NCBI GenBank assembly: GCA_037139415.1 | Contig: JBAXGN010000053.1 | Coordinates: 1 to 40,800 of the forward strand | DNA: 40,800 bases | From: Verrucomicrobiota bacterium | GTDB lineage: Bacteria > Verrucomicrobiota > Verrucomicrobiia > Limisphaerales > Fontisphaeraceae | Reading direction: 5' to 3' | Shown: piece after piece, positions 439 to 14,134 of the stretch | How positions within the stretch are numbered: the first letter of the stretch is position 1 | Layout of the letters: each line of letters opens with the position of its first letter | Made by a program: the position numbers and the translations under genes | The notes under the pieces: generated by a model | Database searches by the model: none | What the model was told of the DNA's origin: nothing | The model's input: only the letters and a program-made list of their open reading frames with translations

Positions 439-1875
439 CTAATTCTTTGTATAGATGTTTTTAACGGCTTGTAAAAAGGGTATATCTGCCATTTTCTTTC
501 CTGAAACAAAACAACCATGAAGCTTGAAATCAGAACCATCAATGGTAACTAAATACTGCATATTGACGACTTCGCCACTGTCGTTCACCCAACGTGCTTC
601 AACTAAATAATGGGTATAACGCTCAGGTTCCAAGTCAGAAAGCTTGCCAGCAGTCCAAATCGCGCTTGGGGCCACCACTGCGAAAATTTCGCCAATCGTA
701 ACATTGCCTCCCCAAGCCTTTAAGTACCCTCTGGTAACAACTTTCCATCCGTACCGGGTTATGCCAGCTTCAACAAGTTTTTCCCTCTGAGCGCGGTATT
801 CGGCCATCGCTCTTGCGTTCTCCTCTTGATCGCGTTTTGCTTTGGCGGCGGCTTTGGCGGCGGCCACTCTGGCCTGCTCCGCAGCCTCTCGGGCTTTGAT
901 TTTGGCCAACCGAAAGGCAATGACTTTTGGTTCACGCTCGACTAAATCAGAATCGAACAACTCCCAAGCCAGCCGGATTGAAAAACGTCCGTCCATTTGT
1001 TTAATAACGATGCCCTCATCATTCACATCAACAATTTTCCCAACATAGTTATTGTCGAGTTTTAAATGAAAAGTTCTCGGTTCGTTCTCCGGTAGCGGCG
1101 GAAGCGCTACAGTTTTGGTCGGTAATTTGATTACACGGAATACATTCGACAACACAGGCGGATTGTTCGCGGTGATTAAATTGGTTGTTGGGCTATTGGT
1201 GAAAGCATTTGTGGCCACGGTGTTATTAACAGCGGAAATTATCGGGGCCTTGGACTCATTTGTTTGGGTGGGAATAGCCACAACCAACTTGGACTCATTT
1301 GTTGCAGCGCTAGAGATTGGCTTGGTTGTCACGGACTTTTTTGACTTTCCAGACCACGGATCAATAAAAACAACCGCACCAACCAGTAACGCGAGCAAAA
1401 GAGCAATTCCAGAAACCACATATACCTTGCTCGCAAAACGGCCGGCTGATTTTTGAGGATGCTGTGATTGCGAAAGCGGCTCTTCAGAATCTTTACCGGC
1501 TGCACCTGACATTTGCATCTCAGCATGAGGCTCAATAGATGCTTCCGCAGAACTACTTGAGGTAGCCTGATAAAATTCCCGTAAAGTAATCCATTCACCA
1601 CACACCTGAATTTCGGTAAGTAACCCGATCTGGCCGGATTCCAAACGGTTGTCAATTTCCTCCAGCGGAAAGGGGCCTGCTAAACGTCCGCGCCAACGGA
1701 TTTGGTATGTTTCCTGCTGCACTGGTTGGTTAATACCGGGATTTTTTAGTGAAACAATAGGAGCCTGGACGGCGGATTCAGTTTGGCAATGCGGACAAAC
1801 AACCTTGGATGGTTTACCATCTACGTTAACCTCAATCTGGGCAGAACAACCGCTGCAAGTGTATTTGACGCGCAT
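439..1875 (-). CDS. Zinc-ribbon + GYF_2 + SHD1-like membrane protein
   Basis: This 478-residue protein is the last gene of the putative GTPase/MotAB-like operon. It begins with a zinc ribbon (CSGC near residue 8, CPHC near residue 28). A GYF_2 (DUF4339) domain follows at about 57-104, with the family pattern WRGRLAGPF...IGLLTEI...WITLREF. After a low-complexity linker there is one membrane helix (about 150-170), then a long Thr/Asn/Ser-rich linker. A segment at about 270-320 resembles SHD1 domains (HLKLDNNYVGKIVDV...DGRFSIRL), followed by an Ala/Arg-rich coiled coil (320-370) and a C-terminal globular part of about 100 residues. GYF-type domains bind proline-rich peptides, so a scaffold or adaptor role is likely but inferred. 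Its GYF_2 domain is clearly paralogous to those at 4886-5464 and 5479-6174. The start ATG directly precedes the zinc ribbon. Confidence 0.85.
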   Translation of the reverse strand: MRVKYTCSGCSAQIEVNVDGKPSKVVCPHCQTESAVQAPIVSLKNPGINQPVQQETYQIRWRGRLAGPFPLEEIDNRLESGQIGLLTEIQVCGEWITLREFYQATSSSSAEASIEPHAEMQMSGAAGKDSEEPLSQSQHPQKSAGRFASKVYVVSGIALLLALLVGAVVFIDPWSGKSKKSVTTKPISSAATNESKLVVAIPTQTNESKAPIISAVNNTVATNAFTNSPTTNLITANNPPVLSNVFRVIKLPTKTVALPPLPENEPRTFHLKLDNNYVGKIVDVNDEGIVIKQMDGRFSIRLAWELFDSDLVEREPKVIAFRLAKIKAREAAEQARVAAAKAAAKAKRDQEENARAMAEYRAQREKLVEAGITRYGWKVVTRGYLKAWGGNVTIGEIFAVVAPSAIWTAGKLSDLEPERYTHYLVEARWVNDSGEVVNMQYLVTIDGSDFKLHGCFVSGKKMADIPFLQAVKNIYTKN

Positions 1876-1931
1876 TTGAAACCTTTTTGTTCGATGTTAC
1901 ATGCGTTAGATCATATCCGGTGCGATGTGGC

Positions 1932-2861
1932 CTATTGTGGTTTTGGGCGGTGCCCTACAGAGCTAAAGGTAACGGGGCCGTTTTGTTTCAGAAACGGCTC
2001 CCATCCGTATGGCAAATTTAGGGCAGTGGCAATTTGCTTTGCCTTGTTGAATTCGGGAAATGAATCTTCAAAGACGCAAAAGGTTAAGTATACATCGTCC
2101 CTAGGTATGGTTTTAAATAAATCCCGTATTCGCGTGCTATCGCCCCCAGCATAGCCACTACCGGGAATAGGGTTGGCAATATCACTACCACCGATAGAGG
2201 TCCACTTGATGGACAATTCGTTTTTTCTCATGTCCGCATATCGGCAAGGATAAATGCTCCCATACTGCACGATAACGTAGAACGGGTGCTTTCCAGTCGC
2301 GTATTCTTTGGGCAGGCGAAGCGAATGCTGGGATTCATTGATAACCTCGGAGACCTGTTGTTGCAGTGCTTCGGCGCGCTGTTTAAGTCGTTTATTGTTT
2401 TCGTTGGCAGCAGAAAGGCTATTTTGCGCTTCCAACTTCCGAGCTTGAACAGTTGCCATCTGTGCGTTTAAAAATTTTAGTCTCTCGGCCGGGGTCCCGT
2501 TAGCGGCTGTTGCAAGTTCCTTGTTGTTTTGCGTCACGTCCTCTTTTGCCTGCGTCACGCCTGCCTGCAATTCCTTGCGGGTCGCCAATAAGGTGACTTG
2601 CTTTTTCCAGCGTTCATCGTTGGCCTTATTTTGCAATTGCACCGCAAGTTCCTGGGAATGTTGCAAATTAGTCTGCGCAAGGGTCAGTCGGCGATTGAGC
2701 ATTTCCTGCGTGTCCGATGCGGACTCGGAACGCTTTCCGCGTTCCTTGCTGGTAAGCAGAGTTACCAACACAGCCAGTAATACGATGCCACCAAACGCGT
2801 TACACATTGTATCGAGCAACATGTAAAGACTATCGGACGGATGGTTGCGTCGTAATTTCAT
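1932..2861 (-). CDS. MotB/ExbD-like subunit, type 2
   Basis: The protein has 309 residues. A short basic N-terminus leads into one membrane helix that contains an acidic residue at its entrance (LLDTMCNAFGGIVLLAVL, Asp17). This is the arrangement of MotB/ExbD/TolR stators, where the aspartate carries protons or sodium ions. A long coiled coil covers about 40-170. A C-terminal domain (about 185-300) is related in layout to that of the neighbour at 2866-3939, but no OmpA-type peptidoglycan-binding motif is visible. The gene follows that neighbour by only 4 bp and belongs to the same operon as the MotA-like gene at 3936-4859. Membership in the MotB/ExbD superfamily rests on topology, the acidic residue and context rather than strong similarity. 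The two MotB-like proteins differ enough that a heteromeric stator is plausible. Confidence 0.75.
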   Translation of the reverse strand: MKLRRNHPSDSLYMLLDTMCNAFGGIVLLAVLVTLLTSKERGKRSESASDTQEMLNRRLTLAQTNLQHSQELAVQLQNKANDERWKKQVTLLATRKELQAGVTQAKEDVTQNNKELATAANGTPAERLKFLNAQMATVQARKLEAQNSLSAANENNKRLKQRAEALQQQVSEVINESQHSLRLPKEYATGKHPFYVIVQYGSIYPCRYADMRKNELSIKWTSIGGSDIANPIPGSGYAGGDSTRIRDLFKTIPRDDVYLTFCVFEDSFPEFNKAKQIATALNLPYGWEPFLKQNGPVTFSSVGHRPKPQ

Positions 2862-2865
2862 GGTC

Positions 2866-3939
2866 TCATAGTCCTATAGCTTTGCGAAAACGTTGCCACC
2901 AAGAATCAGTTTTCTGGGCAGGTGGAGCCTCGGCAGGCATAGTGTTTGATGCGTTGTTTACCGTCTGGCGCGGAGTGGCGTTGGTGACTGGGACACTTTG
3001 ACTGCGGTTGGTTGTGCCATTTTGATTTGATGCTGCAACCGTTGTGTCGGTAGGTGCCGTAGTTTCGTCCAGGGACGGTGGTGTGGAGAAATGAATCTGC
3101 CGCCCCTCTTCCAAGGCATCATAGCCAACTTCAAAATTTAGCTTGCGGGCAGTGTTTAGAAGATCTTGAAACAAATCTATCCCCGATGGCCGCACCAGAA
3201 ACACGACATACTGGTCAAGTTTTTTGGCTGCTTGAAGGTAGTTTTCAAAATCTGACCCAGCATTATATTTGTCGAAACTCTTCCGCTGTTCAGGATGGTC
3301 AAAGCGTTCAAGGATGATGCCCGAGCCTGCCACAATCACTAAAATGGGTTCTTTGGTGGAGGCATTTTTATCTGGAATAAGCCAGAGTTGCCCCTCTCGC
3401 TGGCGCACTTTTAAGAGTTGCGATTGTACACGCGCAACTTGTTGTTCCAACCTGGCCATTTCTCCGCGCGCTTGAGCTTCGGCTTTTACAAGGGTATCGT
3501 TCTCTTCAGTTATTCGTTGAATGGAAGCCTTGAGATCCGTGAGTCCCAGAGCGTTGTCACGGGCCAGGATTGCCGCTTTGCTGCCCGATAACTGCGCAAG
3601 GATTGCCGCTTGTTTTTGTTGTGCCTGAGATAGTTCGGTGCGGAGGCGGGCAATATCCGCCTCAAGTTTTTCTACAGCCGGAGCAGTTTCAACCGCAGCA
3701 AGCAATTCCTGCAACCGACGGTTTTGAGAGTCGGCATCGAGTTGTTGGCGCAACGTTTCCTGCAATTGTTGCTCGATTTTGAGATCGGCAGGGGAGGCGG
3801 AATCGCCAGCCAGCGGCTGCTCCAAATCGGTCGCCAATATCAAAGTGATAAAGACAAGCATGCCGCTCACTGCGGTTATCACATCCGCAAAAGCAAAGAA
3901 ACTGATTTTCGTATCCAGATTTCTGAGACGACCTCTCAT
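2866..3939 (-). CDS. MotB/ExbD-like subunit, type 1
   Basis: This 357-residue protein has a basic N-terminus and one membrane helix (about 14-37). The helix contains FAFADVITAVSGM, in which the aspartate of FAD matches the ion-carrying aspartate of MotB (YADFMTA). A coiled coil of roughly 130 residues (45-185) follows. Next is a globular domain (about 190-300) with the segment FLVRPSGIDLFQDLLNTAR, and then a Thr/Asn-rich tail. No OmpA/MotB peptidoglycan-binding domain is seen, so peripheral anchoring, if any, must differ from flagellar MotB. Its start codon overlaps the stop codon of the MotA-like gene (ATGA overlap at 3936-3939), which indicates translational coupling and fixes the start. 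It probably forms an ion-driven complex with that gene product. The substrate ion is unknown. Confidence 0.82.
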   Translation of the reverse strand: MRGRLRNLDTKISFFAFADVITAVSGMLVFITLILATDLEQPLAGDSASPADLKIEQQLQETLRQQLDADSQNRRLQELLAAVETAPAVEKLEADIARLRTELSQAQQKQAAILAQLSGSKAAILARDNALGLTDLKASIQRITEENDTLVKAEAQARGEMARLEQQVARVQSQLLKVRQREGQLWLIPDKNASTKEPILVIVAGSGIILERFDHPEQRKSFDKYNAGSDFENYLQAAKKLDQYVVFLVRPSGIDLFQDLLNTARKLNFEVGYDALEEGRQIHFSTPPSLDETTAPTDTTVAASNQNGTTNRSQSVPVTNATPRQTVNNASNTMPAEAPPAQKTDSWWQRFRKAIGL

Positions 3940-4859
3940 GATTTGGATTCTGGAGTATTGGTTTCCAATGGTGCTGGTTTGCGATCGGCCAAACGGAGTT
4001 TGGATACAATGTGCAAATGACAGTAATCATTGCATTCATCGAGAAAGGTCATCTCCCGCTTTTGCTGAAACGTAATGCCCAATTGCAGGATCAATGTAAA
4101 GGTCAATGCGACCAGTGTGGCCTCGAACGCCGTGGCAAGACCACTTGTGACGCCTTGAAGCGAATTACGTATCATTGTTATGTCACCACCTGCCTGAAGG
4201 GTTTCCGTAAAACGTCCGATGCCTAGACTTAAACCGAGAACGGTTCCGATGAATCCAAGCACTGGAACGGCCCAAACCAACCCGTTTACAATCGTATAGC
4301 TTGAAGCGACTTGGTCCTCATCATTTTCCGCCTGCGCGCGGAGAATGGCGGAAACATCGTTAACCTGGCCTATGTTCCTGAAATTGGACAAAGCGCGATC
4401 AATCCGGTTTAGCAGGACAAAATGACGAGGATGGTCAACCAGAGCATGAACCCTAGCCAAGACCGTGGCGGCTGTCGTTTCGTTTAGCACGAACTCTGGT
4501 TCAACGGGCACGGCTGAGAGCGTCAACGCCCGACGTTGAAACTTCAGTTTAATATTTTTCAGAATGAGAATTGAACTTCCCCAGAACAGGAAGAGGGTGG
4601 CTGGAATGACGGCAAACTGGTTGCTGGGACGCATATAGATGGTTGTTACCGGAGCGAGCCACGCAATATGGCTGAAGACAAAAATCACCAAACCATAGAG
4701 GATGCCTGACAACAGAGCACCCATCAGAAAGGCCAACAGGTGGTTGACATCCGTGTAACGTCCGCCTTTGAAGCCAAGCCGATTTTCAATATCCTGTTGA
4801 GCCCAGGCAAGCAAGACCGGGCGTTGTTCGTTTTTTATATTGCTGGGAAATTGCGCCAT
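3936..4859 (-). CDS. MotA/TolQ/ExbB-family proton-channel subunit
   Basis: This is a 307-residue inner-membrane protein with about four helices (roughly 42-64, 82-102, 192-214 and 240-264). The last two helices and the loop between them carry the typical MotA/TolQ/ExbB signature: VPVLGFIGTVLGLSLGIG, then GLATAFEATLVALTFTLIL. In known systems five such subunits surround two MotB/ExbD subunits and convert ion flow into rotation or mechanical work. Here the partners are the two genes immediately downstream, the first of which overlaps this one by four bases. The gene sits in the middle of a long single-strand operon with a GTPase and a GAP1-like protein. Flagellar or Tol genes are absent, so a dedicated motor for this system is inferred rather than housekeeping motility or TonB energisation. 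Confidence 0.9.
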   Translation of the reverse strand: MAQFPSNIKNEQRPVLLAWAQQDIENRLGFKGGRYTDVNHLLAFLMGALLSGILYGLVIFVFSHIAWLAPVTTIYMRPSNQFAVIPATLFLFWGSSILILKNIKLKFQRRALTLSAVPVEPEFVLNETTAATVLARVHALVDHPRHFVLLNRIDRALSNFRNIGQVNDVSAILRAQAENDEDQVASSYTIVNGLVWAVPVLGFIGTVLGLSLGIGRFTETLQAGGDITMIRNSLQGVTSGLATAFEATLVALTFTLILQLGITFQQKREMTFLDECNDYCHLHIVSKLRLADRKPAPLETNTPESKS

Positions 4860-4885
4860 AGGATTTTAGTTATAAATATTTATTG

Positions 4886-5464
4886 TTAGGGTTTCCTTCG
4901 ATTTCCAAAAACATAGAGAATGGCACCAACCACACATAAGCCAAGGCCAGCAATAATGCCATTTTGGCGATCAGCGATGAGGCCTAAATTATTGACTCTC
5001 CCCCCAAGGCCGCTCGGAACACTCTGATCAAACAATAGGAAATAATATCCAGCCAGCAACAAGCCAATGATCAAAACGAGGGTTCCCAAGGTTTTTATGG
5101 CCGTTGATTCTGGCCGTACCCCTGGTTCTGCTGGCAGGGTTTCCATGCTAGCGCGTTGTTCCAGCAGCGCGTTTTGCCGCCTTTGTTCATCAAGTTTTTC
5201 TTGTTCCAGTTGTTTCGCCACGATTTGGGACTGCCGTTCAGCTTCCTCTTCTGCCAAACGTTGCTCTTCGGCAAGGCGTTCCATTTCCATTTTTTGCAGA
5301 GAAACTTGGACTTCAAAGAATGCGCGGAGCGTAATCCATTTACCTTGGTATTGGATTTCGTGAAGCATCCCAATTTCACTTTTTCCCAAACGGCGTTCAA
5401 TGTCCGCCAAAGAAAATGGTCCCGTCACGCCTCCATGCCACCGTAATGAAAATTTTTGTTCCAC
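4886..5464 (-). CDS. GYF_2-domain membrane protein, short form
   Basis: This 192-residue protein begins directly with a GYF_2 (DUF4339) domain (residues 3-48: FSLRWHGGVTGPF...IGMLHEI...WITLRAF). A highly charged Glu/Gln/Arg-rich coiled coil follows (about 55-105). Two membrane helices (about 125-145 and 168-186) then flank a short loop, and the protein ends in a basic tail NRRKP. The N-terminal GYF_2 domain is probably cytoplasmic and may bind proline-rich segments of partners in the operon. It is a paralogue of the proteins at 439-1875 and 5479-6174, sharing the GPF, IGML/IGLL and WITLR elements. It lies 26 bp upstream of the MotA-like gene. Function is unknown beyond a likely scaffold or sensor role in this membrane complex. 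Confidence 0.82.
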   Translation of the reverse strand: MEQKFSLRWHGGVTGPFSLADIERRLGKSEIGMLHEIQYQGKWITLRAFFEVQVSLQKMEMERLAEEQRLAEEEAERQSQIVAKQLEQEKLDEQRRQNALLEQRASMETLPAEPGVRPESTAIKTLGTLVLIIGLLLAGYYFLLFDQSVPSGLGGRVNNLGLIADRQNGIIAGLGLCVVGAILYVFGNRRKP

Positions 5465-5478
5465 GAGCCGTATGATTT

Positions 5479-6174
5479 CTACCTAGGTTGGATGATAATC
5501 GGTGGTGGTTTGTTTGCCTCGACAGCGCCATCAACGATTGTCTTAAACATGGAAGCAGCCGCATTCAAAGCGGCAGCTTTTTCCTGAGCCTTTGCTGCCT
5601 CCTTAACCGCCTCGGCAGCAGCTCGGTCTGCTTCAATTCGGCTGCTTATTACAATATATACCAAAGTGCTCACCAGCACCAAGGCAGTAATAATGGCGAC
5701 ATACATTAACTTTGTTGGGGTCTGGCTTCTGTTTGATAATATCGCAACATGTTTATTGTTAGCATGTTGCTCGATTTTCATCAACTCGGTTCGCCGTTTC
5801 TCATCTAACAGCAATTCACGTTTTTGCTGTATTGCACGCTCGCTTTCCGCCTGTGCTTTCTCTGCTTGGGAAGCGCGTTCATTTTCAATACGGATTTCCT
5901 CCATGACTAGCCGTTGTTGCGCTTGAAAATCCCGAAGTGTAAGCCATCCCCCATCAACGAGTATCTCGTGCAACATGCCAATTTCATTCGTGTCGAGTTT
6001 GGTTTTAATGTTTGAAAGCGCATACGTCCCCATTAGTTTTCCACGCCACCGGAGTTGGTATGACTCCTCTATATTTGAGGTTAATGGCGGCACGAGCAGA
6101 GATTCCTGAACCCTCGAAGGTGGTGGGTTCCGCTGAAAACTTGCACCATGGCTTGGAGAATTGGGTTTATTCAT
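5479..6174 (-). CDS. GYF_2-domain membrane protein with two coiled coils
   Basis: The protein has 231 residues. After a Pro/Ser-rich leader of about 35 residues comes a GYF_2 domain (about 38-85: YQLRWRGKLMGTY...IGMLHEI...WLTLRDF). A charged coiled coil (85-140), one membrane helix (about 155-178) and a second Ala-rich coiled coil (180-215) follow, with a proline-rich end (KPPPIIIQP). That proline-rich tail is a possible ligand for the GYF domains of sister proteins, which is inference from known GYF preferences. The gene lies 14 bp before the next GYF_2 gene and 17 bp after the large membrane protein gene at 6192-9152. The second position of the usual GPF motif is changed here (GTY), so its GYF surface may have diverged. 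Confidence 0.82.
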   Translation of the reverse strand: MNKPNSPSHGASFQRNPPPSRVQESLLVPPLTSNIEESYQLRWRGKLMGTYALSNIKTKLDTNEIGMLHEILVDGGWLTLRDFQAQQRLVMEEIRIENERASQAEKAQAESERAIQQKRELLLDEKRRTELMKIEQHANNKHVAILSNRSQTPTKLMYVAIITALVLVSTLVYIVISSRIEADRAAAEAVKEAAKAQEKAAALNAAASMFKTIVDGAVEANKPPPIIIQPR

Positions 6175-6191
6175 GGTCTTGTTTGGATGCC

Positions 6192-9152
6192 CTAATTATT
6201 CAGATTAAAGATCCATGGCAAAACGTTTATATATGTCACCGCTTGGGGATTGACCCCGGCGCCTTCAAGAAATTGAGCGCGTGTTTTGGAGAGTTTGTAT
6301 AAAGGAGACAAGGGCATAGCTTTTTCTGTGAATCCAGACCGCACGTTGGCTCTGCTCCCAAGCAATGTGGGTTGTTTCAGTGTAATGCTGTAGCCCCAAA
6401 TTTCTTCAGGTACGGCACCATCGGCAAACACCGGCTGGCCATCAAGACCAACAAATCCAACATATTGCAGTCCCCCTTTGGATATTTCGCGCATCAACTG
6501 AACCAATCCCGTCGCCTGTTTTGTGTACGAAATATTTTCGACGGAACTGAAGAATCGGTCAAGCCGGTCAGCATAGGCATTTATTTTAGCCGGAACAAAC
6601 CAATCCCCGCTATTCAAGCCATTGTCAACAATGCTATTAATGGTGTTGTAGTCGGCGGAAATTGCCGGTGCAAACGCCAAGCCCCAGGCTTCAGGTTGAA
6701 CCCGCATGATTTCCACCAGTCGCAGATATAGGTATGCACGGAAAACAGGGGAGCCAGAGTGGCATTTTTTTAGATTATCAAGGATTTCCAATAGCGGCTT
6801 TCGATACGTGGTCTCTCCCCCCATATCCTGCAAACCAATCGAATTATAAGCCGCAGTCTCATTGTTCATTTCTGCTGTCTCAATGCGGTAGATTGGTTGA
6901 GTAGGCGTTAATTTGAATTTCCCTTCAAAAACCCCGTATTCAGACACTTTATAAACACAGGCGTTCTTTGAACTGGACGGATCGTATGCGTTGATCGTGT
7001 GCCAGCCAGCATCAGAGTTAAGGGTGCCCTCAATAATCCATTCCAATACCTTGGTTCCCTTCTCGTCCAGCCACAATCGTAAGCGCTGATGCCTGCCAAT
7101 GATCGCAGTATCTTGCTTTATATGATTGAGGAATGCCTGTTCACCCGGAAACACCGTTTCTGGCACGAAGAGCATTGGTTGTTCCTTGTTTAAAAATGCC
7201 CATTCACTGGCATTGGTGGCGTTCAGAAGAAATCGCAGCAGCGTTTCTTCATTCGGGCCAATGGCTAGCATGGCCATCGCTGCTTTCACCTGCGGGGCGG
7301 TGGAGAACTCGGAGGAAGCCATTAAAGCCAATGCTTCAGAATAGTTGGTCGTGGCGCGCGCTTTTTGCAGATTGAAATACCCGGTATCGAGTTTCTTCAA
7401 CTCCGTATCGTATGCGCCGTATTTCGTCCGAATCGTCGCCGCTCTTTGCACCAAGTCGCTACGGATTTGAAGACGATTCGTAAACCCTGTTTCACTCTCA
7501 GTAATTTGGAACACGCGATTTGATAGGCTGGCAAGCTGGGCGCGCACCTGATCTACGGGAGCCCCATAATCCAAGGCTGCACATTTCGTTTCTGCCAACG
7601 CCAGCCATTGTTCAAGCATTTCATTTATGGCTGTGCTTCTTTCGGCAAGGCATTTTTCCCAGCGAATCTCAAACCCTTTGACCCTGGCCGAATGTTCTTC
7701 TTTTAAATCTGGAGACAACGCGTCTAAATTAGTGCGTGCCATGGCCAGCAGTTCGTAAATTTTGTTAAGCTCGGTGCCGGCGAGATTGTCCTCAAGTTCC
7801 TTTGGCAGTTTAACGGTTATCTCTTCAAAGTTTTTAAATAGATTCCGTTCTTTGCTGACAAAACTTTCGGCGGCAGCGGTAGCGGTGCTGAGCATCCCAA
7901 ATGCGAACGGTTTTTTGTAGGTTTGCTGCGTCTCAAGCAGTTTCTCGGCGATGCGGACTTGCCGCTGGGTCACCGCTTCATTCAACTGTTTCGCATAGTC
8001 ACGGGTCCTGAAATAGGCCAGCGTCGCCCATGAGGCTGCTCCAATAATAACCAGACACGCAATGACCCCGGTAATTAATGCGCGTTTGCGTATCAGGGTT
8101 CGACGATTTATCTCGGCTTCAAGCAATAACGACCTTTTTTGAAAAGCCGCCGTGGCATCGCTGGCAATGGGACGAGTGAAATCCTGAAGTATGCGCCATA
8201 CTTTGTGCAGATTCTCGAAGTCCTCTTTCATTTCCACGAGACCGACCTGACGCGCCAGCGTGTCCTTTTCTTCGCTTTGTTGAATCAGATACCGCAGTTC
8301 GGCAACTCGCGCCTGAAACTCCCGATCACGGTTGTAGCTTTCCTGTTCGCCTAATGCCCACTCTTTAAGTTGCTCAACTTTTTTTAGCACCTCTGGACTC
8401 AACTCCAATGTATGCTCGCTCCGCAACCGTTGGATGAAATCCAATAAGGACAAGGTTTCCATCCAATTCGCTGCCTGCCTTGCGGTTTCACCTTTCTCCA
8501 GCAATGTACCACAGCGTATTATTTGGGCATTACGCCATATCTCGCCCTCCGGTTGGTTTTTAAAACCAAAGCCTTCGATGGCTTCAATTTGTGCGACCAC
8601 AACCTCCGGGTTGCCTGCAGCCAATACATCACCAAGCTGTTGCAGCTTGAGTTGAAGCACTTTGCCATCCAAACGTGTCTGTTCAGCGATTGCGTTTGTA
8701 TCGCCTGGATTCAACCGGGTGATGCTTTGGAGTGCTTGCAGCGCTTTTTCATCGTTGCGTGCGAAGGCAGCTTTGCGATAAGCCGCATACAGAGGATGAT
8801 CCGTGGATATTCCCTGCGCGTAACATTCGTTCAGCGTTTGAACCGCACGCGCATCAATTTTATCGGCAACTGGAAGCCCCCGTTGCTGGCAGAAAGTCCG
8901 CCAGTCGTCAGACGTACGAAATTCGAGCGCGGTGACACAATCCAGCAGGTTTGGCGCGGTTTCCGCCATTTGGAGCGCCTGTTGAAAATCCCGCGCTTTA
9001 ACCATCGTCTCGCATTGTTGGAGCCGTAGGTTTATCAAATGGCAGGCCGCAGAAAAATCTTCCGCCAGCTTGGGTGCGATGGACGCATTACCAGGTTCCT
9101 GCAAAATCTCGATGATTTTACGTACCAGTCGCTCTATGTCGAGTAGGGTCAT
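6192..9152 (-). CDS. Large single-span membrane protein, unknown family
   Basis: This 986-residue protein belongs to no family I recognise. Residues 1-350 are almost entirely helical and Ala/Leu/Glu-rich with TPR-like spacing, ending in a basic RRTLIRKR. One clear membrane helix lies at about 358-380. By the positive-inside rule the first 350 residues are cytoplasmic and the remaining 600 extracytoplasmic. Residues 380-660 are again helical and coiled-coil prone. Residues 690-986 look globular and mixed, with many aromatic residues (WLDEKGTKVLEWIIEGTLN, for example). Such a protein could bridge a cytoplasmic GTPase module to periplasmic parts. It is the third gene of the operon, 18 bp downstream of the GAP1-like gene. 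The stop at 6192 and the ATG at 9152 are clean, and no frameshift was seen. Confidence 0.85.
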   Translation of the reverse strand: MTLLDIERLVRKIIEILQEPGNASIAPKLAEDFSAACHLINLRLQQCETMVKARDFQQALQMAETAPNLLDCVTALEFRTSDDWRTFCQQRGLPVADKIDARAVQTLNECYAQGISTDHPLYAAYRKAAFARNDEKALQALQSITRLNPGDTNAIAEQTRLDGKVLQLKLQQLGDVLAAGNPEVVVAQIEAIEGFGFKNQPEGEIWRNAQIIRCGTLLEKGETARQAANWMETLSLLDFIQRLRSEHTLELSPEVLKKVEQLKEWALGEQESYNRDREFQARVAELRYLIQQSEEKDTLARQVGLVEMKEDFENLHKVWRILQDFTRPIASDATAAFQKRSLLLEAEINRRTLIRKRALITGVIACLVIIGAASWATLAYFRTRDYAKQLNEAVTQRQVRIAEKLLETQQTYKKPFAFGMLSTATAAAESFVSKERNLFKNFEEITVKLPKELEDNLAGTELNKIYELLAMARTNLDALSPDLKEEHSARVKGFEIRWEKCLAERSTAINEMLEQWLALAETKCAALDYGAPVDQVRAQLASLSNRVFQITESETGFTNRLQIRSDLVQRAATIRTKYGAYDTELKKLDTGYFNLQKARATTNYSEALALMASSEFSTAPQVKAAMAMLAIGPNEETLLRFLLNATNASEWAFLNKEQPMLFVPETVFPGEQAFLNHIKQDTAIIGRHQRLRLWLDEKGTKVLEWIIEGTLNSDAGWHTINAYDPSSSKNACVYKVSEYGVFEGKFKLTPTQPIYRIETAEMNNETAAYNSIGLQDMGGETTYRKPLLEILDNLKKCHSGSPVFRAYLYLRLVEIMRVQPEAWGLAFAPAISADYNTINSIVDNGLNSGDWFVPAKINAYADRLDRFFSSVENISYTKQATGLVQLMREISKGGLQYVGFVGLDGQPVFADGAVPEEIWGYSITLKQPTLLGSRANVRSGFTEKAMPLSPLYKLSKTRAQFLEGAGVNPQAVTYINVLPWIFNLNN

Positions 9153-9170
9153 GTGGGATGATTCAATCAG

Positions 9171-11222
9171 TTATTTTTTCTTTTTTTGGTGATTTGAAGT
9201 GTCTGGGTTTGAGTGGTTAGTTGGTGGTGGATTTGCTTGCAACACGACATTTGAACGGGGACCGACAGCATTAGAGGCCGATGCATTTGTTGCGGAACCA
9301 GTTAGTACTACCCTGTAATTTTGATTCGCTTCGATGATTAACCAACCGACAAAAAGTCCAGTCGTTGTGGGATGAAAGCTGACGGAAAAGTTGACATTGT
9401 TATTCAGAGTTAACTCGTCAGGGGAAAGAAGTTTAAAGGCCCCTTCAACATTAGTTTTAGCAGAATTAGTGATTGTTGCTTTTATCTTGATAGGCACCGT
9501 TCCTTGATTAGTTATTGTAAAAAGATTAGTAGCATTGGCACCAACAGCAATATCGTTAAATTTTAACGAGGTCATTGGAGCTAACACTTGTGGCAAACCA
9601 CCACCAGTAACCTTTACAGTATCGGCGCACTCCTTACCAAGGCGATGCACAAAAAACTGATTTGTCCAAATAAGGCGAATCGTCTCCTCGATGTTAGTAG
9701 TGCTGGTTGGCATGAAACTAACCGCGACATGGCCGGTCTCACCAGGCCGAAGGCAGAAGTAAGCATCGCCTTGGATGGCGAAGGGCGATTTTGCTTCCAC
9801 TTTTCCAGCCAAAATCAATCGGTTGGCATTTACAAATTCCAAGTTGGTAGTCACAGCATTACCAACGACAGTGGGATCAAAATTCAGAACTGTTGGTACG
9901 ATAGCCAATTGAGTTTTCATCCAAGGTTTCGCCCAGACTGTGTATGCACATAGGCAGATGGCTACCACGACCGGAATACTCATGACCAACATTTGAATAG
10001 TCTGGTGTCGTTTTGCGCGCCGCTCTTGTTCGTTTTTCGCCGCCAGCCGCTGGCGCTGAGCCTCAATTTCCTGCTCGGTTTTAATGTAGCCTGGCCCATG
10101 CTTCACCGGAGTTGGCGAGACAGCCAATGCTGGTCGCGGCGAAAGCCTCACCGGCTGATGAATCTCGAGTTCAATAATCTGGCTGTTTTTTGCGCCAATA
10201 GAGTTATAAGCTTGGACCGTATAGCGTTTGGCCCGGCCTTTGGGTTGCTCGTCCAGAGTTGGCCCGGAACGTCCAACCATTGCAACCGGTTTTCCCTGCT
10301 CGATTTCAAACCAGCTAAAACTTGGGTATGGTATTCCATCCGCTTTGGCCTCAAGGTGTACAAAATCACCTTCCGTAATGAAACTTTTGTTCAGCCTGAT
10401 CTCAACATGGCTTGGGGCTTGCCAGCCTTTTTGGGCAAAAGATTGCTCTTCCGAATTACCTGGGGCAGCGCGAAGACTGGCCAGAGGCGGGCTAACATTT
10501 CCGCCGAACTTGGCAAAAGCGGGGTTGTCCCGATGCACAAAGCGCCAGCGGAAGTCGGTGGGATTGTCCTGCTCCTGCATGGATGTTGTCAGCGTATATT
10601 GCCAGGATGCCATTTTAAAGTCGCCGCGGGAATCCCTGAGTTCCAACAATTCCATGCTTTCACCCAACAATGTGAGCAGATCACTTTCCCCAACTCCGTC
10701 AGCACAAAAGCACGTGCCAGGTTTTGTTTCCAACAGCGCATACCCATTAGCCGCGTCACCCGTCAGGTGTCGCCACGCTTTCCCCGGTAGGCAGGTCGTT
10801 CTCACTAGCGAATTAAGATTGCCCCAGTTCTCATTACTCAACTGTTGAGGCTCACGATTCCAGGATGTCAACCAGCCGGACCAGTCCCGCAAAATGACGG
10901 CAGGGGTGGAAAGTTGGCCGATTTCCTCGGGACTAAACGCAAGGTGATGCGCGATGAAATTGGTGCGCCCTGAGTAATCCAATCCGGCATCCTGAATCCG
11001 ACTCAACACATGATAGCGGCTGCCACGAATATCAACGGTACGATAGGCAAAGATCGGACGGTCTTTTCCCCCGCTCAGGGAAAGGTGATGATAATAACTG
11101 AGCTGCTCCAAGCGCAGCATGAGTGCGTCTCGCATGGCGGCACTGCGCGCGACAGTGCAATAGCCAGAGCGTCCGGACACCAAACCCCGAGGTGCGCTGG
11201 TATATATGAGTTGTTGAGGCAT
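9171..11222 (-). CDS. GAP1-N2-like GTPase-associated membrane protein
   Basis: The 683 residues start MPQQLIYTSAPRGLVSGRSG, which matches my recollection of the GAP1 N-terminal domain type 2 (GTPase-associated protein 1). That domain and a probable middle domain fill about 1-260. An Ig-like domain follows at about 270-355 (EGDFVHLEAKADG...SFSWF). A Gln/Arg-rich coil leads to one membrane helix (about 411-431). Two extracytoplasmic beta domains of the ASH/DUF1573 type follow (about 440-540 and 545-645), with a Lys-rich end. GAP1 proteins occur beside DO-GTPases in predicted NTP-dependent conflict systems, and that partner is the gene directly upstream. An ATG 90 bases further upstream is in frame, but it lies inside the GTPase gene. 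The ATG at 11222, two bases after that gene's stop, fits the domain boundary and operon spacing. Confidence 0.85.
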   Translation of the reverse strand: MPQQLIYTSAPRGLVSGRSGYCTVARSAAMRDALMLRLEQLSYYHHLSLSGGKDRPIFAYRTVDIRGSRYHVLSRIQDAGLDYSGRTNFIAHHLAFSPEEIGQLSTPAVILRDWSGWLTSWNREPQQLSNENWGNLNSLVRTTCLPGKAWRHLTGDAANGYALLETKPGTCFCADGVGESDLLTLLGESMELLELRDSRGDFKMASWQYTLTTSMQEQDNPTDFRWRFVHRDNPAFAKFGGNVSPPLASLRAAPGNSEEQSFAQKGWQAPSHVEIRLNKSFITEGDFVHLEAKADGIPYPSFSWFEIEQGKPVAMVGRSGPTLDEQPKGRAKRYTVQAYNSIGAKNSQIIELEIHQPVRLSPRPALAVSPTPVKHGPGYIKTEQEIEAQRQRLAAKNEQERRAKRHQTIQMLVMSIPVVVAICLCAYTVWAKPWMKTQLAIVPTVLNFDPTVVGNAVTTNLEFVNANRLILAGKVEAKSPFAIQGDAYFCLRPGETGHVAVSFMPTSTTNIEETIRLIWTNQFFVHRLGKECADTVKVTGGGLPQVLAPMTSLKFNDIAVGANATNLFTITNQGTVPIKIKATITNSAKTNVEGAFKLLSPDELTLNNNVNFSVSFHPTTTGLFVGWLIIEANQNYRVVLTGSATNASASNAVGPRSNVVLQANPPPTNHSNPDTSNHQKKKK

Positions 11223-11224
11223 TT

Positions 11225-12658
11225 TCAGTTGGGCTGGGAAGGATGCCCAGAGACAGATTGATGGTTTGGTTCGGTTGGCAAAACGTTGGGACAAAGCTGT
11301 GAAAGAATCCAAAGCAGTGGAATTTCGACATGGATGGGTTCCAATCTGGCCGGGTCAGGGACATACTCTCCAGGGCCGCTTTTAATAGGCGTATGGCCGA
11401 AGGAACTGGCGGCAAAAAAGGCGATGTTTTCGCTGAGTGTTTCCGCGTTGGCGACAACGGAAGGGCAGATCTCGCGCATGAGCGACCGAACTCGGTCAGA
11501 ATTACTTTGGAGAACCCCAAGGTTTAATTTCCCGTTTTGAATGGGGTTTTCGATGGGTGACCCATTAAACAAGTGCGACCACGCATCGCATTTCCCGACG
11601 ACGAAGGCAACCGGAGTTTGAATTTTCGCGCCAAACCGCAGGTTGCGTAGCGCGCAGATTCGGGTGCGCATTTCTGATAGGATGATATCCTGTTGATCAA
11701 CGATGGGCTTTTCGAGTTGCGGGTCCTTTGTGCTCTGCATTCGGCGGCGGAATTCAGGACTGTTGAACGGGTCAAAAAGATAAACAATGCCAGCCGCACT
11801 GGCCACATGTTGCGCCCCGGGTTGTTCCACCACGTTTACGCCTGGCTGGAAATGTTCACCGGCGTTATCGTAGAAGATCAGCGCGCACCGATCTTCTTCC
11901 TGCGCGGCTGGCGACATTGTGTACACAAACGGTCGAGGCAAAGCAACCATACGGCCTTGTCGCGGCAGGCGTTCGTACATGGCCCCTTCAAATACGGTCT
12001 TGGCAAGTTTAGCCTGTCCAGGTGTTTGGGCGCCAAACAAAGCTTTTCGCATGTCGTTAACCGGTGCATTTCCTGTTGGATCACTATCTTGGAAAAATAC
12101 GCCAAATTGACTGTAAAGGGTGGCTGGCAGAACTTTTGTGAGGACACTGAGATAATAGGACTTTCCGGCACTTGCATCACCCACAATGGAAATAATATGG
12201 TGCGGTATCTCCATAAAACCGGGCGGCAGCTTACGCCGACAATGCGGGCAAGCCACGTCCGAACACGGCAAGCTCATGGCATCCAGAGCCTGTCCAGAAT
12301 TGTTGAATCGGGTTGCCAAAAACCGTTGTTGTGCGTCTTCACCAAGAACCGGATCACCACGCAATGAATCATGTACTGCTATGCTCATGATGACACTGCT
12401 GTCAAAGTGCAACCAGCAAACCGGACAGGTGAGTTCACCATCAGGATTTACCGCCGAAGCAATTGATTCCGGCGTGGATGGCAAACCGTCGTCTCCGGAT
12501 TGTATGCTCAACGTAGACGGCTGGATTGCTTCATCAGTAGTTGTTCCATCTATAAAAAACTCACCCTGACAGATGGGACAAGTAACCGACTGTCCTGCGT
12601 AACTCTCATCCACTGCGAGCTTTTGACTACATAGCGGACATGAAATATTAAATTCCAT
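11225..12658 (-). CDS. Zinc-ribbon GTPase, DO-GTPase-like
   Basis: The protein has 477 residues and is probably the first gene of the operon. Two N-terminal zinc-ribbon units are visible: CPLC at 7-10 with CPIC at 27-30, and CPVC at 78-81 with CPHC at 137-140. A GTPase domain follows with G1 GDASAGKS (160-167), G3 DNAG (264-267), G4 GKCD (355-358) and a G5-like AASS near 420. GKCD is a variant of NKxD that retains the guanine-contacting lysine and aspartate. This layout fits the double-GTPase (DO-GTPase type 2) group described next to GAP1 proteins. No membrane helix is seen, so it is cytoplasmic. The start is the ATG at 12658, which precedes the first zinc ribbon and has a GAGG-type ribosome-binding site 7 bases upstream. 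An in-frame GTG 12 bases earlier is less likely. Confidence 0.9.
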   Translation of the reverse strand: MEFNISCPLCSQKLAVDESYAGQSVTCPICQGEFFIDGTTTDEAIQPSTLSIQSGDDGLPSTPESIASAVNPDGELTCPVCWLHFDSSVIMSIAVHDSLRGDPVLGEDAQQRFLATRFNNSGQALDAMSLPCSDVACPHCRRKLPPGFMEIPHHIISIVGDASAGKSYYLSVLTKVLPATLYSQFGVFFQDSDPTGNAPVNDMRKALFGAQTPGQAKLAKTVFEGAMYERLPRQGRMVALPRPFVYTMSPAAQEEDRCALIFYDNAGEHFQPGVNVVEQPGAQHVASAAGIVYLFDPFNSPEFRRRMQSTKDPQLEKPIVDQQDIILSEMRTRICALRNLRFGAKIQTPVAFVVGKCDAWSHLFNGSPIENPIQNGKLNLGVLQSNSDRVRSLMREICPSVVANAETLSENIAFFAASSFGHTPIKSGPGEYVPDPARLEPIHVEIPLLWILSQLCPNVLPTEPNHQSVSGHPSQPN

Positions 12659-12678
12659 AACCCTCAACACCTAATTTC

Positions 12679-12705
12679 ATTAAATAATTCTTAGTGAATT
12701 CTCAA
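12679..12705 (-). promoter_or_regulatory. Candidate operon promoter
   Basis: On the minus strand TTGAGA (12705-12700) is followed after 15 bases by TTTAAT (12684-12679), about 20 bases before the GTPase start codon. The nine bases TTGAGAATT (12705-12697) recur in the candidate promoter of the divergent WYL regulator at 13088-13096. A GAATTCaCTAAGAATT near-repeat overlaps the spacer. Spacing is short for a sigma-70 promoter, so this is a moderate prediction. Confidence 0.35.
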
Positions 12706-12733
12706 AAAGTAAAACCGACTCGCGAATTTCTAT

Positions 12734-13033
12734 TTAATTGCATATGTAAGAGCCTATGGCAGGTGTAATAGATGCGCAAGTATAATGTACTCTTTTTTCA
12801 ACGCACGCGCGCATGACTGAAGGGCGCATCGGTTTAGCTTCGCAACCAACTTGCCCTTGTTCAATTTTTATTTGGCGAATAGAATAAACGTCTGAGCAAT
12901 AAATCAGTTTTCTTACGCTCCATATTAATTCACTCGCACGTCTGGTTTGAACCATGGCCGCAGCAACCGACATAGGAACAGCCACCAGCCACTTCAGAAA
13001 CGACCGCTTGGATTCATCCATGTTCAGTTTCAT
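12734..13033 (-). CDS. Doubtful small ORF with Tat-like N-terminus
   Basis: This frame of 99 residues lies in the 486-bp gap between the operon and the WYL gene. Its N-terminus (MDESKRSFLKWLVAVPMS) resembles a Tat or Sec signal with a KR pair in place of RR. The rest has no recognisable domain, and four cysteines are scattered through it. No Shine-Dalgarno sequence precedes the ATG at 13033. It could be a small secreted or membrane protein of the island, a decayed remnant, or chance. If it is real, it would be the first minus-strand gene and the promoter at 12679-12705 would be internal. Confidence 0.22.
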   Translation of the reverse strand: MKLNMDESKRSFLKWLVAVPMSVAAAMVQTRRASELIWSVRKLIYCSDVYSIRQIKIEQGQVGCEAKPMRPSVMRACVEKRVHYTCASITPAIGSYICN

Positions 13034-13048
13034 ACGCAAACCATACTA

Positions 13049-13076
13049 CCAGGGGAGTGCCAATTACGGACCCTGG
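13049..13076. promoter_or_regulatory. Candidate inverted-repeat operator upstream of WYL gene
   Basis: CCAGGG (13049-13054) and CCCTGG (13071-13076) form a perfect six-base inverted repeat with 16 bases between the arms. It lies just upstream of the candidate WYL promoter. WYL regulators bind as dimers to spaced inverted repeats near their own promoters, so this is a reasonable operator candidate. The repeat is short enough to arise by chance. Confidence 0.28.
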
Positions 13077-13087
13077 GTACTTTTTTA

Positions 13088-13115
13088 TTGAGAATTTTTT
13101 ACGGTCTGCTATCAA
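13088..13115 (+). promoter_or_regulatory. Candidate promoter of the WYL regulator
   Basis: TTGAGA (13088-13093) and TATCAA (13110-13115) are separated by 16 bases, in an A+T-rich tract. The predicted transcript would begin about 25 bases before the ATG at 13145. The first nine bases, TTGAGAATT, are identical to those of the candidate promoter of the divergent operon, which may reflect a shared control site. Confidence 0.42.
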
Positions 13116-13144
13116 TCTCCCAACGCACAGTCCATCAAGTCTTT

Positions 13145-14134
13145 ATGAAGAATACGAAAAACGTACGCTATACCCGGCCACCCTGGGAACGGATGATGCA
13201 GATCCATGAAAAGATTCAGCAGGGGGAATATCCTAATTGTGTGCAGATGGCCAGGGAGATGGAGGTATCCTTGCGAACCATGAAGCGCGACGTGCAATTC
13301 ATGAAGGATCGGCTGCATTTACCGATTGAGTATGATGCAGTCAAATATGGGTTCTATTACACGCAGTCAGTAGATCAGTTTCCCCGGGTCGAGATCAGTG
13401 AGGCGGAAATGTTTGCTATGCTAGTCGCGCACAAAGCCATTGCCCAATACCACGGGACACCTTTTCAACAACCGCTGGAAATGGCTTTTCAAAAGATCAC
13501 GGGACAACTTAATCAGCAGGAAGGGTACTCGCTGGATAACTTTGGTGCTGCCCTGTCATTCCGTCCCTTTGCTCCGGAAGACGCTGATTTGAACGCCTTC
13601 CAGATCATCACCCGTGCATTAAGGGAGCGGCGGGCACTAAAGTTCAGGTATAAGAACCTGGGAGCTAAAACTGTACAGGAACGGCTGACCCATCCTTACC
13701 ATCTCGCCTGCATTGAGAATCATTGGTATCTGTTCGCCTTTGATGTCAATCGGCAGGCTATCCGAACTTTTGCCTTGGGCCGATTGACACAGCCGAAGTT
13801 GTTGTCAGCCCGGTTCAAGATGCCCAAGCAATTTGATGCCGATGAATACCTGCGCGGTAGCTTCTCGGTGTATAAAGGGCATGATGATTACGAGGTGGTG
13901 ATTGAGTTTGATGCTTGGGCGACGGACCTGATACGTGGCCGGCATTGGCACTCTAGTCAACAGTTCCAGGAATTACCGGGGAGTGGGTCTCGATTGACTA
14001 TGCGCTTAAACAGCATCGAGGAGATTGATCGTTGGGTATTGGGCTGGGGAACACATGCGACGGTAGTTCGACCAAAGGCTGTGCAGGAACGTATTCGCTC
14101 CATGGCACAAGACCTGTTGCAACGATATAAATGA
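13145..14134 (+). CDS. WYL-domain transcriptional regulator
   Basis: This protein of 329 residues has an N-terminal winged helix-turn-helix (about 10-65, with VQMAREMEVSLRTMKRDVQF as the recognition part). The WYL domain at about 160-240 contains the literal motif in NHWYLFAFD and ends in RTFALGRL. A WCX-type C-terminal domain covers about 250-325. WYL regulators sense ligands, often nucleic acids or nucleotides, and several (BrxR, CapW) repress phage-defence loci. Here it is transcribed divergently from the GTPase/MotAB-like operon, the usual position of a dedicated regulator, so control of that operon is inferred. An upstream in-frame ATG at 12947 would add 66 residues without domain character and would place the promoter inside the gene, so the ATG at 13145 was chosen. 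Confidence 0.9.
   Translation: MKNTKNVRYTRPPWERMMQIHEKIQQGEYPNCVQMAREMEVSLRTMKRDVQFMKDRLHLPIEYDAVKYGFYYTQSVDQFPRVEISEAEMFAMLVAHKAIAQYHGTPFQQPLEMAFQKITGQLNQQEGYSLDNFGAALSFRPFAPEDADLNAFQIITRALRERRALKFRYKNLGAKTVQERLTHPYHLACIENHWYLFAFDVNRQAIRTFALGRLTQPKLLSARFKMPKQFDADEYLRGSFSVYKGHDDYEVVIEFDAWATDLIRGRHWHSSQQFQELPGSGSRLTMRLNSIEEIDRWVLGWGTHATVVRPKAVQERIRSMAQDLLQRYK

What the first reader, a model, noticed from the sequence alone, without database searches (positions are those of the whole stretch)
439..12658. Nine-gene GTPase/GAP1/MotAB-like/GYF_2 operon as a candidate envelope-spanning conflict system
One uninterrupted minus-strand run encodes a DO-GTPase-like zinc-ribbon GTPase, a GAP1-N2-like membrane protein, a 986-residue membrane protein, three GYF_2 membrane proteins, a MotA-like channel and two MotB-like subunits. 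Gaps run from a 4-bp overlap to 70 bp. GTPase plus GAP1 pairs are known from predicted NTP-dependent conflict systems, and MotAB-like motors power Zorya defence. I know of no described system that unites both with GYF_2 scaffolds. Proposed logic: cytoplasmic sensing by the GTPase, transmission through the GAP1 and 986-residue proteins, and ion flow through the MotAB-like complex as effector.
Basis: partly seen in the sequence, partly recalled or inferred. Interest (0 to 1): 0.87.

Follow-up and report, generated by a model that had tools for sequence, protein, structure and literature searches.

The report
GTPase-switched ion motor operon
A conserved bacterial gene set joins a GTP-binding switch protein to a membrane motor probably driven by ion flow, two halves that had been described separately, and it looks more like a machine doing mechanical work across the cell envelope than a proven anti-virus system.

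Summary
The nine-gene operon is real and conserved. Window genes 439-12658 (-) encode a zinc-ribbon GTPase, a GAP1-N2 membrane protein, a 986-aa helical membrane protein, GYF_2-type membrane proteins, a TolQ/MotA-like channel and two different TolR/ExbD-like subunits. In 337 Verrucomicrobiota genomes, 28 of 32 loci of this channel clade lie within 15 kb of GAP1-N2, against 0 of 66 weaker channel hits. GTPase, GAP1, channel and both TolR-like genes occur together in 28 of 31 fetched loci; the other three run into contig ends. GYF is recognised in only 12 of 31. Five of nine channel-positive Planctomycetota genomes hold the full set; two lack GTPase and GAP1. The GTPase-GAP1-986 triad also occurs without the motor, once more in this genome and in eight loci with a PilM-like gene. 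Each half is published: DO-GTPase/GAP1-N2 (2020) and a PVC TPR-tolQ-tolR-tolR-vWA locus (2025); my searches found no paper uniting them. Best reading: a GTPase-switched, ion-driven trans-envelope machine. Conflict function is not shown and not excluded. New variant of a known kind.

The parts
11225..12658 (-). DO-GTPase-like GTPase with two CxxC-type zinc-ribbon pairs in its N-terminal part; GDxxxGKS, DNAGE, GKCD (switch)
   Evidence: PF19993 E 6e-5, below cut-off; motifs invariant in 7 of 7. No TM.
9171..11222 (-). GAP1-N2 protein: GAP1-N2 domain, Ig-like segment, one TM, C-terminal ASH/HYDIN/choice-of-anchor-D Ig-like domains
   Evidence: PF20013 E 3e-23; choice_anch_D; TM at ORF residues 441-459. 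C-terminal part not matched in several relatives.
6192..9152 (-). 986-aa protein: helical region 1-355, TM ~358-376, helical middle, mixed alpha/beta C-terminus
   Evidence: AlphaFold2 mean pLDDT 82.3; TM; no TPR or other Pfam family over cut-off; no usable solved homologue.
5479..6174 (-). GYF_2-type domain plus one TM (scaffold, inferred)
   Evidence: GYF proteins of relatives carry RDD, TM2 or PrsW.
4886..5464 (-). GYF_2-type domain plus two TM
3936..4859 (-). TolQ/MotA/ExbB-like channel, 4 TM
   Evidence: Pfam MotA_ExbB E 6e-7; 44 rows of this clade split from six distant MotA-like proteins of the order with 100/100 support.
2866..3939 (-). TolR/ExbD-like subunit 1 (TM with Asp19, coiled coil, periplasmic domain)
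   Evidence: Asp19 invariant in 13 of 13; model residues 187-277 on TolR 5by4, Z 8.6, rmsd 2.8, 84 aligned.
1932..2861 (-). TolR/ExbD-like subunit 2 (TM with Asp17)
   Evidence: Asp17 invariant in 12 of 12.
439..1875 (-). Zinc ribbon + GYF_2-type domain + one TM + Ser/Thr/Asn/Pro-rich linker + C-terminal domain; candidate force transducer (inferred), at the place where several relatives have one-TM vWA proteins

Best explanation
It is a regulated, ion-driven trans-envelope machine. Shown by sequence: a TolQ/MotA-type 4-TM channel; two different TolR/ExbD-type one-TM subunits, each with an invariant Asp at the start of the TM helix; a zinc-ribbon GTPase; GAP1-N2 and 986-aa one-TM proteins; GYF_2-type membrane proteins; a one-TM protein with a long linker after the motor genes. 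Inferred: five channel subunits around a TolR1/TolR2 axle form a 5:2-type motor driven by proton (or sodium) flow. GAP1 and the 986-aa protein span the inner membrane and report an envelope or surface cue to the GTPase. GTP-bound GTPase, through the zinc-ribbon/GYF and helical proteins, assembles or engages the motor. The ninth protein (vWA proteins in relatives) passes force to peptidoglycan or the outer membrane, as TolA/TonB or the Myxococcus Agl-Glt machine do. The likeliest output is adhesion, gliding-like movement or other envelope work rather than cell killing; that last step is the weakest.
For: Linkage: 28 of 32 strong channel loci within 15 kb of GAP1-N2; all 30 strong-channel genomes hold GAP1-N2 (62 of 337 genomes do); 0 of 66 weaker channel hits linked. 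GTPase, GAP1, channel and both TolR-like genes in 28 of 31 fetched loci, the other three cut by contig ends. Same set in 5 of 9 strong-channel Planctomycetota genomes. Gene order varies while content stays (L110, L118, L119). Invariant Asp in both TolR-like families. Of 12 proteins directly after the motor genes that I gave to Pfam, 7 have vWA over cut-off (L061, L116, L125, L168, L172, L175, L178), 3 below it, 2 none, as in the published PVC TPR-tolQ-tolR-tolR-vWA locus proposed as PMF-driven force transducer (PMC12204202, section 8 read). The triad beside PilM-like genes in 8 of 24 further motor-less loci, so it behaves as a plug-in regulator of envelope machines. AglR with AglQ/AglS has the same one-plus-two composition (PMC9389320, passages); MglA-GTP stimulates both pili and gliding machines (PMC9481161, abstract start in listing).
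Against: No function is tested. Patchy distribution (8 of 146 genomes in the order, 30 of 337 in the phylum) and the variable GAP1 C-terminus suit a conflict system too. The TolR match is barely above an unrelated fold (Z 8.6 against 8.3). The window's own ninth protein has no vWA hit, and a strict TonB-type SHLS pattern (spacing recalled) was in none of 32 downstream proteins from 37 loci, at least four of which are other genes. Two of nine Planctomycetota channel loci lack GTPase and GAP1, and GAP1-N2 is nowhere in those two genomes nor in G481. In Desulfamplus L063 channel and a 990-aa ORF (16% identical to the 986-aa protein) stand without GTPase, GAP1 or TolR-like genes.
Confidence: 0.58

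Rival explanations
1. Conflict (anti-phage or anti-predator) system: GTPase/GAP1 sense invasion and the MotAB-like complex is the effector, dissipating ion gradients or working as in Zorya.
For: Kaur et al. 2020 place DO-GTPase/GAP1-N2 among predicted conflict systems (PMC7159879, passages). Patchy distribution. PADLOC: channel to ZorA E 1e-5, GAP1 TM region to a 4TM effector model E 4e-5. A WYL regulator and a serine recombinase lie beside the window operon. Flank tally leans that way: about 9 against 4 of 89 proteins by system name, 15 against 10 raw matches.
Against: No nuclease, helicase or toxin recognised in the operon. The flank difference is not significant (Fisher p 0.16 for 10 against 4, 0.39 for 15 against 10). 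Channel has no ZorA-like long tail (last TM 240-258 of 307). The triad also joins PilM-like genes.
Confidence: 0.25
2. Specialised Tol-Pal/Ton-like housekeeping device (outer-membrane upkeep or polymer uptake), with the GTPase a minor regulator.
For: TolQ/TolR-type motor parts; a few polysaccharide genes among sampled flanks (first 25 of 118 families seen).
Against: This genome has seven other MotA_ExbB matches, and most sampled relatives lack the locus. TonB-dependent receptors and Pal were not searched for.
Confidence: 0.12
3. Two neighbouring operons that only share transcription.
For: Triad without the motor in 19 of 24 further motor-less GAP1-N2 loci and in L005; channel without triad in 2 of 9 Planctomycetota loci.
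Against: 28 of 31 fetched channel loci keep GTPase, GAP1 and both TolR-like genes, in many families and with changed gene order.
Confidence: 0.05

Closest known systems
DO-GTPase/GAP1-N2 systems (Kaur et al. 2020, PMC7159879)
   Same: Zinc-ribbon GTPase next to a GAP1-N2 protein with TM; Verrucomicrobia named; GYF with trypsin or a TM-rich region named for planctomycetes.
   Different: No FNIII match in the window; has a TolQR-type motor and a 986-aa protein. MotA, TolQ, ExbB, proton channel and flagell have 0 occurrences in that main text; its supplement could not be read.
PVC TPR-tolQ-tolR-tolR-vWA locus (PMC12204202, 2025)
   Same: Helical-repeat gene, tolQ-like gene, pair of different tolR-like genes, one-TM transducer-like gene in PVC bacteria; vWA over cut-off in 7 of 12 downstream proteins of relatives tested.
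   Different: That main text has 0 occurrences of GTPase, GAP1 or GYF; the window's last protein has no vWA hit. That the two are the same kind of locus is inferred from the described order; its example genome was not compared.
Myxococcus Agl-Glt gliding machine with MglA (PMC9389320, PMC3169522, passages)
   Same: One TolQ-like and two different TolR-like subunits, GTPase control, an FHA protein (GltG). GltJ as zinc ribbon plus GYF is recalled, from no call.
   Different: MglA is Ras-like with a roadblock GAP (listing); sequence homology of the parts was not tested.
Zorya (PMC11890865, passages)
   Same: MotA/MotB-like motor in an immune context.
   Different: No ZorA tail and no ZorC/D/E-type effector recognised; peptidoglycan binding not tested.

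Membership tests
DO-GTPase/GAP1-N2 system | GAP1 protein with GAP1-N2 domain | tested here: met
   PF20013 E 3e-23, over cut-off
DO-GTPase/GAP1-N2 system | Adjacent GTPase of the DO-GTPase family with N-terminal zinc ribbons | tested here: inconclusive
   PF19993 23.2 bits, below its cut-off 27; G-motifs and two CxxC pairs seen
DO-GTPase/GAP1-N2 system | Middle and C-terminal GAP1 domains | tested here: inconclusive
   Pfam lists only GAP1-N2 of the GAP1 domains at E<=1
DO-GTPase/GAP1-N2 system | Protein with FNIII repeats | tested here: not met
   No fn3 match at E<=1 in any of the nine proteins; Ig-like domains instead. Hence filed as a variant
TolQR/ExbBD/MotAB-type motor | MotA/TolQ/ExbB channel subunit | tested here: met
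   PF01618 over cut-off; 4 TM
TolQR/ExbBD/MotAB-type motor | One-TM partner with conserved Asp at the TM helix | tested here: met
   13 of 13 and 12 of 12
TolQR/ExbBD/MotAB-type motor | TolR/ExbD periplasmic fold | tested here: inconclusive
   TolR top row Z 8.6 but an unrelated fold at 8.3; second subunit not modelled
TolQR/ExbBD/MotAB-type motor | 5:2 assembly and ion flow | not testable with these tools
   No complex prediction or assay
PVC tolQ-tolR-tolR-vWA locus | vWA transducer after the tolR pair | tested here: not met
   Window P0001 has no vWA hit at E<=1; 7 of 12 relatives' proteins tested do, over cut-off
Zorya | ZorC/ZorD or ZorE effector | tested here: not met
   None recognised
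Zorya | ZorA with long C-terminal cytoplasmic tail | tested here: not met
   P0004 is 307 aa, last TM at 240-258
Agl-Glt gliding machine | Homology to AglR, AglQ, AglS and Glt proteins | not tested
   No Myxococcus sequences were compared

The most novel reading that the evidence does not exclude
The GTPase-GAP1-986 triad is a general plug-in switch for envelope machines in PVC bacteria, fitted either to a rotary motor whose axle is an obligate heterodimer of two TolR-like proteins or to a PilM-based assembly: a second, unrelated solution to what MglA does for gliding motors and type IV pili in Myxococcus.
Probability: 0.3. Interest if true: 0.82.

Novelty: new variant of a known kind. Interest (0 to 1): 0.62.

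Why it matters
Two orphan discoveries, a predicted GTPase conflict system and a predicted force-transducing motor, appear to be one conserved locus. That gives the GTPase family a concrete output to test, gives the motor a concrete regulator, and questions the label 'conflict system' for this branch. A motor with two different axle subunits would also bear on whether AglQ and AglS pair as heterodimers, which PMC9389320 calls unknown (passage).

Tried and rejected
Zorya membership: rejected (no tail, no effector recognised). Fixed core locus: rejected. Defence-island setting: PADLOC at E<=1e-15 on a random 89 of 114 flank ORFs of the 31 channel loci and on all 89 ORFs of 20 control windows from 20 of the 30 channel genomes. 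The tool gives matches per family, not per protein: 15 against 10 raw matches; by system name 10 against 4, or 9 after one search showed that the WYL and Cas3c hits are one protein, the window's WYL regulator. Fisher p 0.16 (10 against 4) and 0.39 (15 against 10). Solved-structure sequence searches: weak TolQ match for the channel (E 0.41), coiled coils for subunit 1, nothing useful for GTPase, subunit 2 or the 986-aa family. Foldseek for the 986-aa model: one row at E<=0.001 (IFT70, TM 0.06 by query), not usable. Strict SHLS pattern, spacing recalled: none in 32 proteins. The channel tree has the Planctomycetota row inside an 11-row group with Verrucomicrobiota (98/99), which suits transfer, but MAG contamination is not excluded; L119 is a long branch that meets the outgroup. 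Fisher p 7e-26 for genome co-occurrence ignores relatedness. In one search my TM scan read gapped rows for five proteins; repeated correctly.
Full report
Observation. The nine minus-strand genes at 439-12658 exist with gaps of -4 to 56 bp. Families: GTPase (below the DO-GTPase2 cut-off, invariant G-motifs in 7 of 7), GAP1-N2 and MotA_ExbB over cut-off; GYF_2-type domains by profile comparison only; two TolR/ExbD-like subunits; a 986-aa helical protein with one TM. 'MotB-like' should read TolR/ExbD-like.

Conservation in the order. The channel (P0004) has strong homologues (E<1e-90) in 8 of 146 genomes, this one included (21 of 146 at E<=1e-3), and the GTPase profile has strong matches (E<1e-130) in the same 8 (11 of 146 at E<=1e-3: G110 only fragments, G137 and G108 weak). 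The two other same-family genomes lack both (G002 has a zinc-ribbon-sized match of E 6e-4). Of the seven other strong channel loci five carry GTPase-GAP1-986-GYF-channel-TolR1-TolR2 in the same order; the other two lie on contigs of 4.0 and 5.3 kb and hold what fits.

Conservation in the phylum. In one sample of 337 genomes the channel profile gives 98 loci at E<=1e-15: 32 strong (E<1e-80, 30 genomes) and 66 weaker; GAP1-N2 gives 71 loci in 62 genomes, 61 of these genomes over the cut-off. Of the strong loci 28 of 32 have GAP1-N2 within 15 kb, of the weaker 0 of 66; of the GAP1-N2 loci 28 of 71 have a strong channel within 15 kb. I fetched 31 of the 32 strong loci (not G391:C55, which starts 138 bases into its contig). 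GTPase, GAP1, channel and both TolR-like genes were found in 28 of 31; the other three (L121, L123, L125) have the 986-like gene, channel and both TolR-like genes and run into contig ends within about 2.3 kb on the GTPase side. The 986 family was recognised in 27 of 31, and the other four have an unassigned ORF of 1029-1080 aa in the locus. GYF was recognised in 12 of 31, in 11 outside the GTPase ORF. So the constant part is GTPase, GAP1, 986, channel and the two TolR-like genes; GYF proteins are common but not constant by this profile.

Other phyla. A genome-contig scan with the channel alignment gave 17 named loci, several being contigs already seen above. All six constant components are visible in 9 of 17 (L052, L053, L054, L055, L058, L059, L062, L065, L066; L052 with a GTPase cut by the contig start); six (L050, L051, L056, L057, L060, L061) are on contigs that end inside the locus; two are Desulfamplus. 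L064 lies on a 3.7-kb contig. L063 has the channel and an upstream 990-aa ORF (16% identical to the 986-aa protein in my alignment) but no GTPase, GAP1 or TolR-like gene in its 20.6 kb; that genome has GTPase-GAP1 on another contig (L166). In the phylum of the Planctomycetaceae genome G481, 9 of 246 genomes have a strong channel (E<1e-80). The full set is in 5 of 9 (L188, L189, L190, L193, L194); two loci are cut by contig ends (L061 and L195); two (L191, L192) lack GTPase and GAP1. GAP1-N2 is in 6 of these 9 genomes, not in G481, G540 and G655.

Core and modules. The window's genome has a second GTPase-GAP1-986 triad on another contig without motor beside it (L005). Of the 43 GAP1-N2 loci without a strong channel within 15 kb (L005 among them) I read 24 more: 19 of 24 have the triad by profile, and 8 of 24 have a PilM-like gene next to the 986 gene, two confirmed by Pfam PilM_2 and the rest by similarity to the first; five of the eight also keep two further small genes. 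GYF proteins of relatives carry TM2, RDD, PrsW protease or a sub-threshold trypsin-like part; one TolR-like subunit (L058) carries a trypsin-like protease. The gene after TolR2 often encodes a one-TM protein with a Gly/Ser-rich linker (by eye about 11 of 32 read). Of 12 such downstream proteins given to Pfam, 7 have vWA over cut-off, 3 below it, 2 none. The window's last gene sits there, without a vWA hit.

Mechanism. Shown: composition, topology by hydropathy, invariant Asp, linkage. Inferred: 5:2-type assembly with a mixed axle, ion flow, GTPase control, force transfer. The closest working parallel is the Agl-Glt machine, with one TolQ-like and two TolR-like subunits (PMC9389320 passages; PMC3169522 passages) under a GTPase that also controls type IV pili (PMC7668184 abstract and start of introduction; PMC9481161 abstract start). 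The resemblance of GltJ (zinc ribbon, GYF) is recalled and comes from no call. Membership in that family was not tested.

Known or new. Kaur et al. (PMC7159879, passages) describe DO-GTPase/GAP1-N2 systems, with GYF-trypsin or GYF-TM genes in planctomycetes, as predicted conflict systems; MotA, TolQ, ExbB, proton channel and Zorya have no occurrence in the main text. [quoted passage not shown] GTPase, GAP1 and GYF have no occurrence. The listings of searches showed no paper that unites them; most subscription papers and all supplements were out of reach. I therefore call it a new variant of a known kind.

Conflict reading. It rests on the family label, patchiness, variable domains, weak PADLOC matches and a non-significant tilt in the flank tally. 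Against it: no effector nuclease recognised and the triad's association with PilM-like genes. It keeps a probability of 0.25.

Noticed in passing
L005 (G000:C124), 6433-13874: Second GTPase-GAP1-986 triad in the same genome without motor; its GTPase has an FHA-like (Yop-YscD_cpl, E 0.007, below cut-off) N-terminus.
   Followed up: partly
L127, L128, L131, L132, L133, L134, L135, L137: Triad (GTPase cut by the contig in L134) with a PilM-like gene; five of the eight keep two further small genes, PilN/PilO-like by look only.
   Followed up: partly
L040-L049: Another MotA-like family of the order: channel domain inside ORFs of 530-1183 aa, most followed by a 260-300 aa gene and some by a further gene of 390-490 aa; no GTPase/GAP1 homologue of this system seen beside them.
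   Followed up: no
L039 (G085:C693) 568-2069: A GTPase fragment abuts a channel fragment: deletion, decayed copy or assembly chimera.
   Followed up: no
L058 10852-12639: TolR-like subunit 1 fused to a trypsin-like protease (PF13365 E 6e-27).
   Followed up: no
window 12947-14131 (+) and 14963-16591 (-): WYL/WCX regulator and a serine recombinase next to the operon; the only WYL match among the 89 sampled flank proteins is this one.
   Followed up: partly
flanks of channel loci (A7): PP2C phosphatase in 3 of 89 and T2SSE ATPase in 2 of 89 sampled flank proteins.
   Followed up: no
L058 record CAMAUZ010000054.1: Named Akkermansia muciniphila, yet the contig of the same length lies in G038, a 7.9 Mb genome of the window's order; the label looks wrong.
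   Followed up: no
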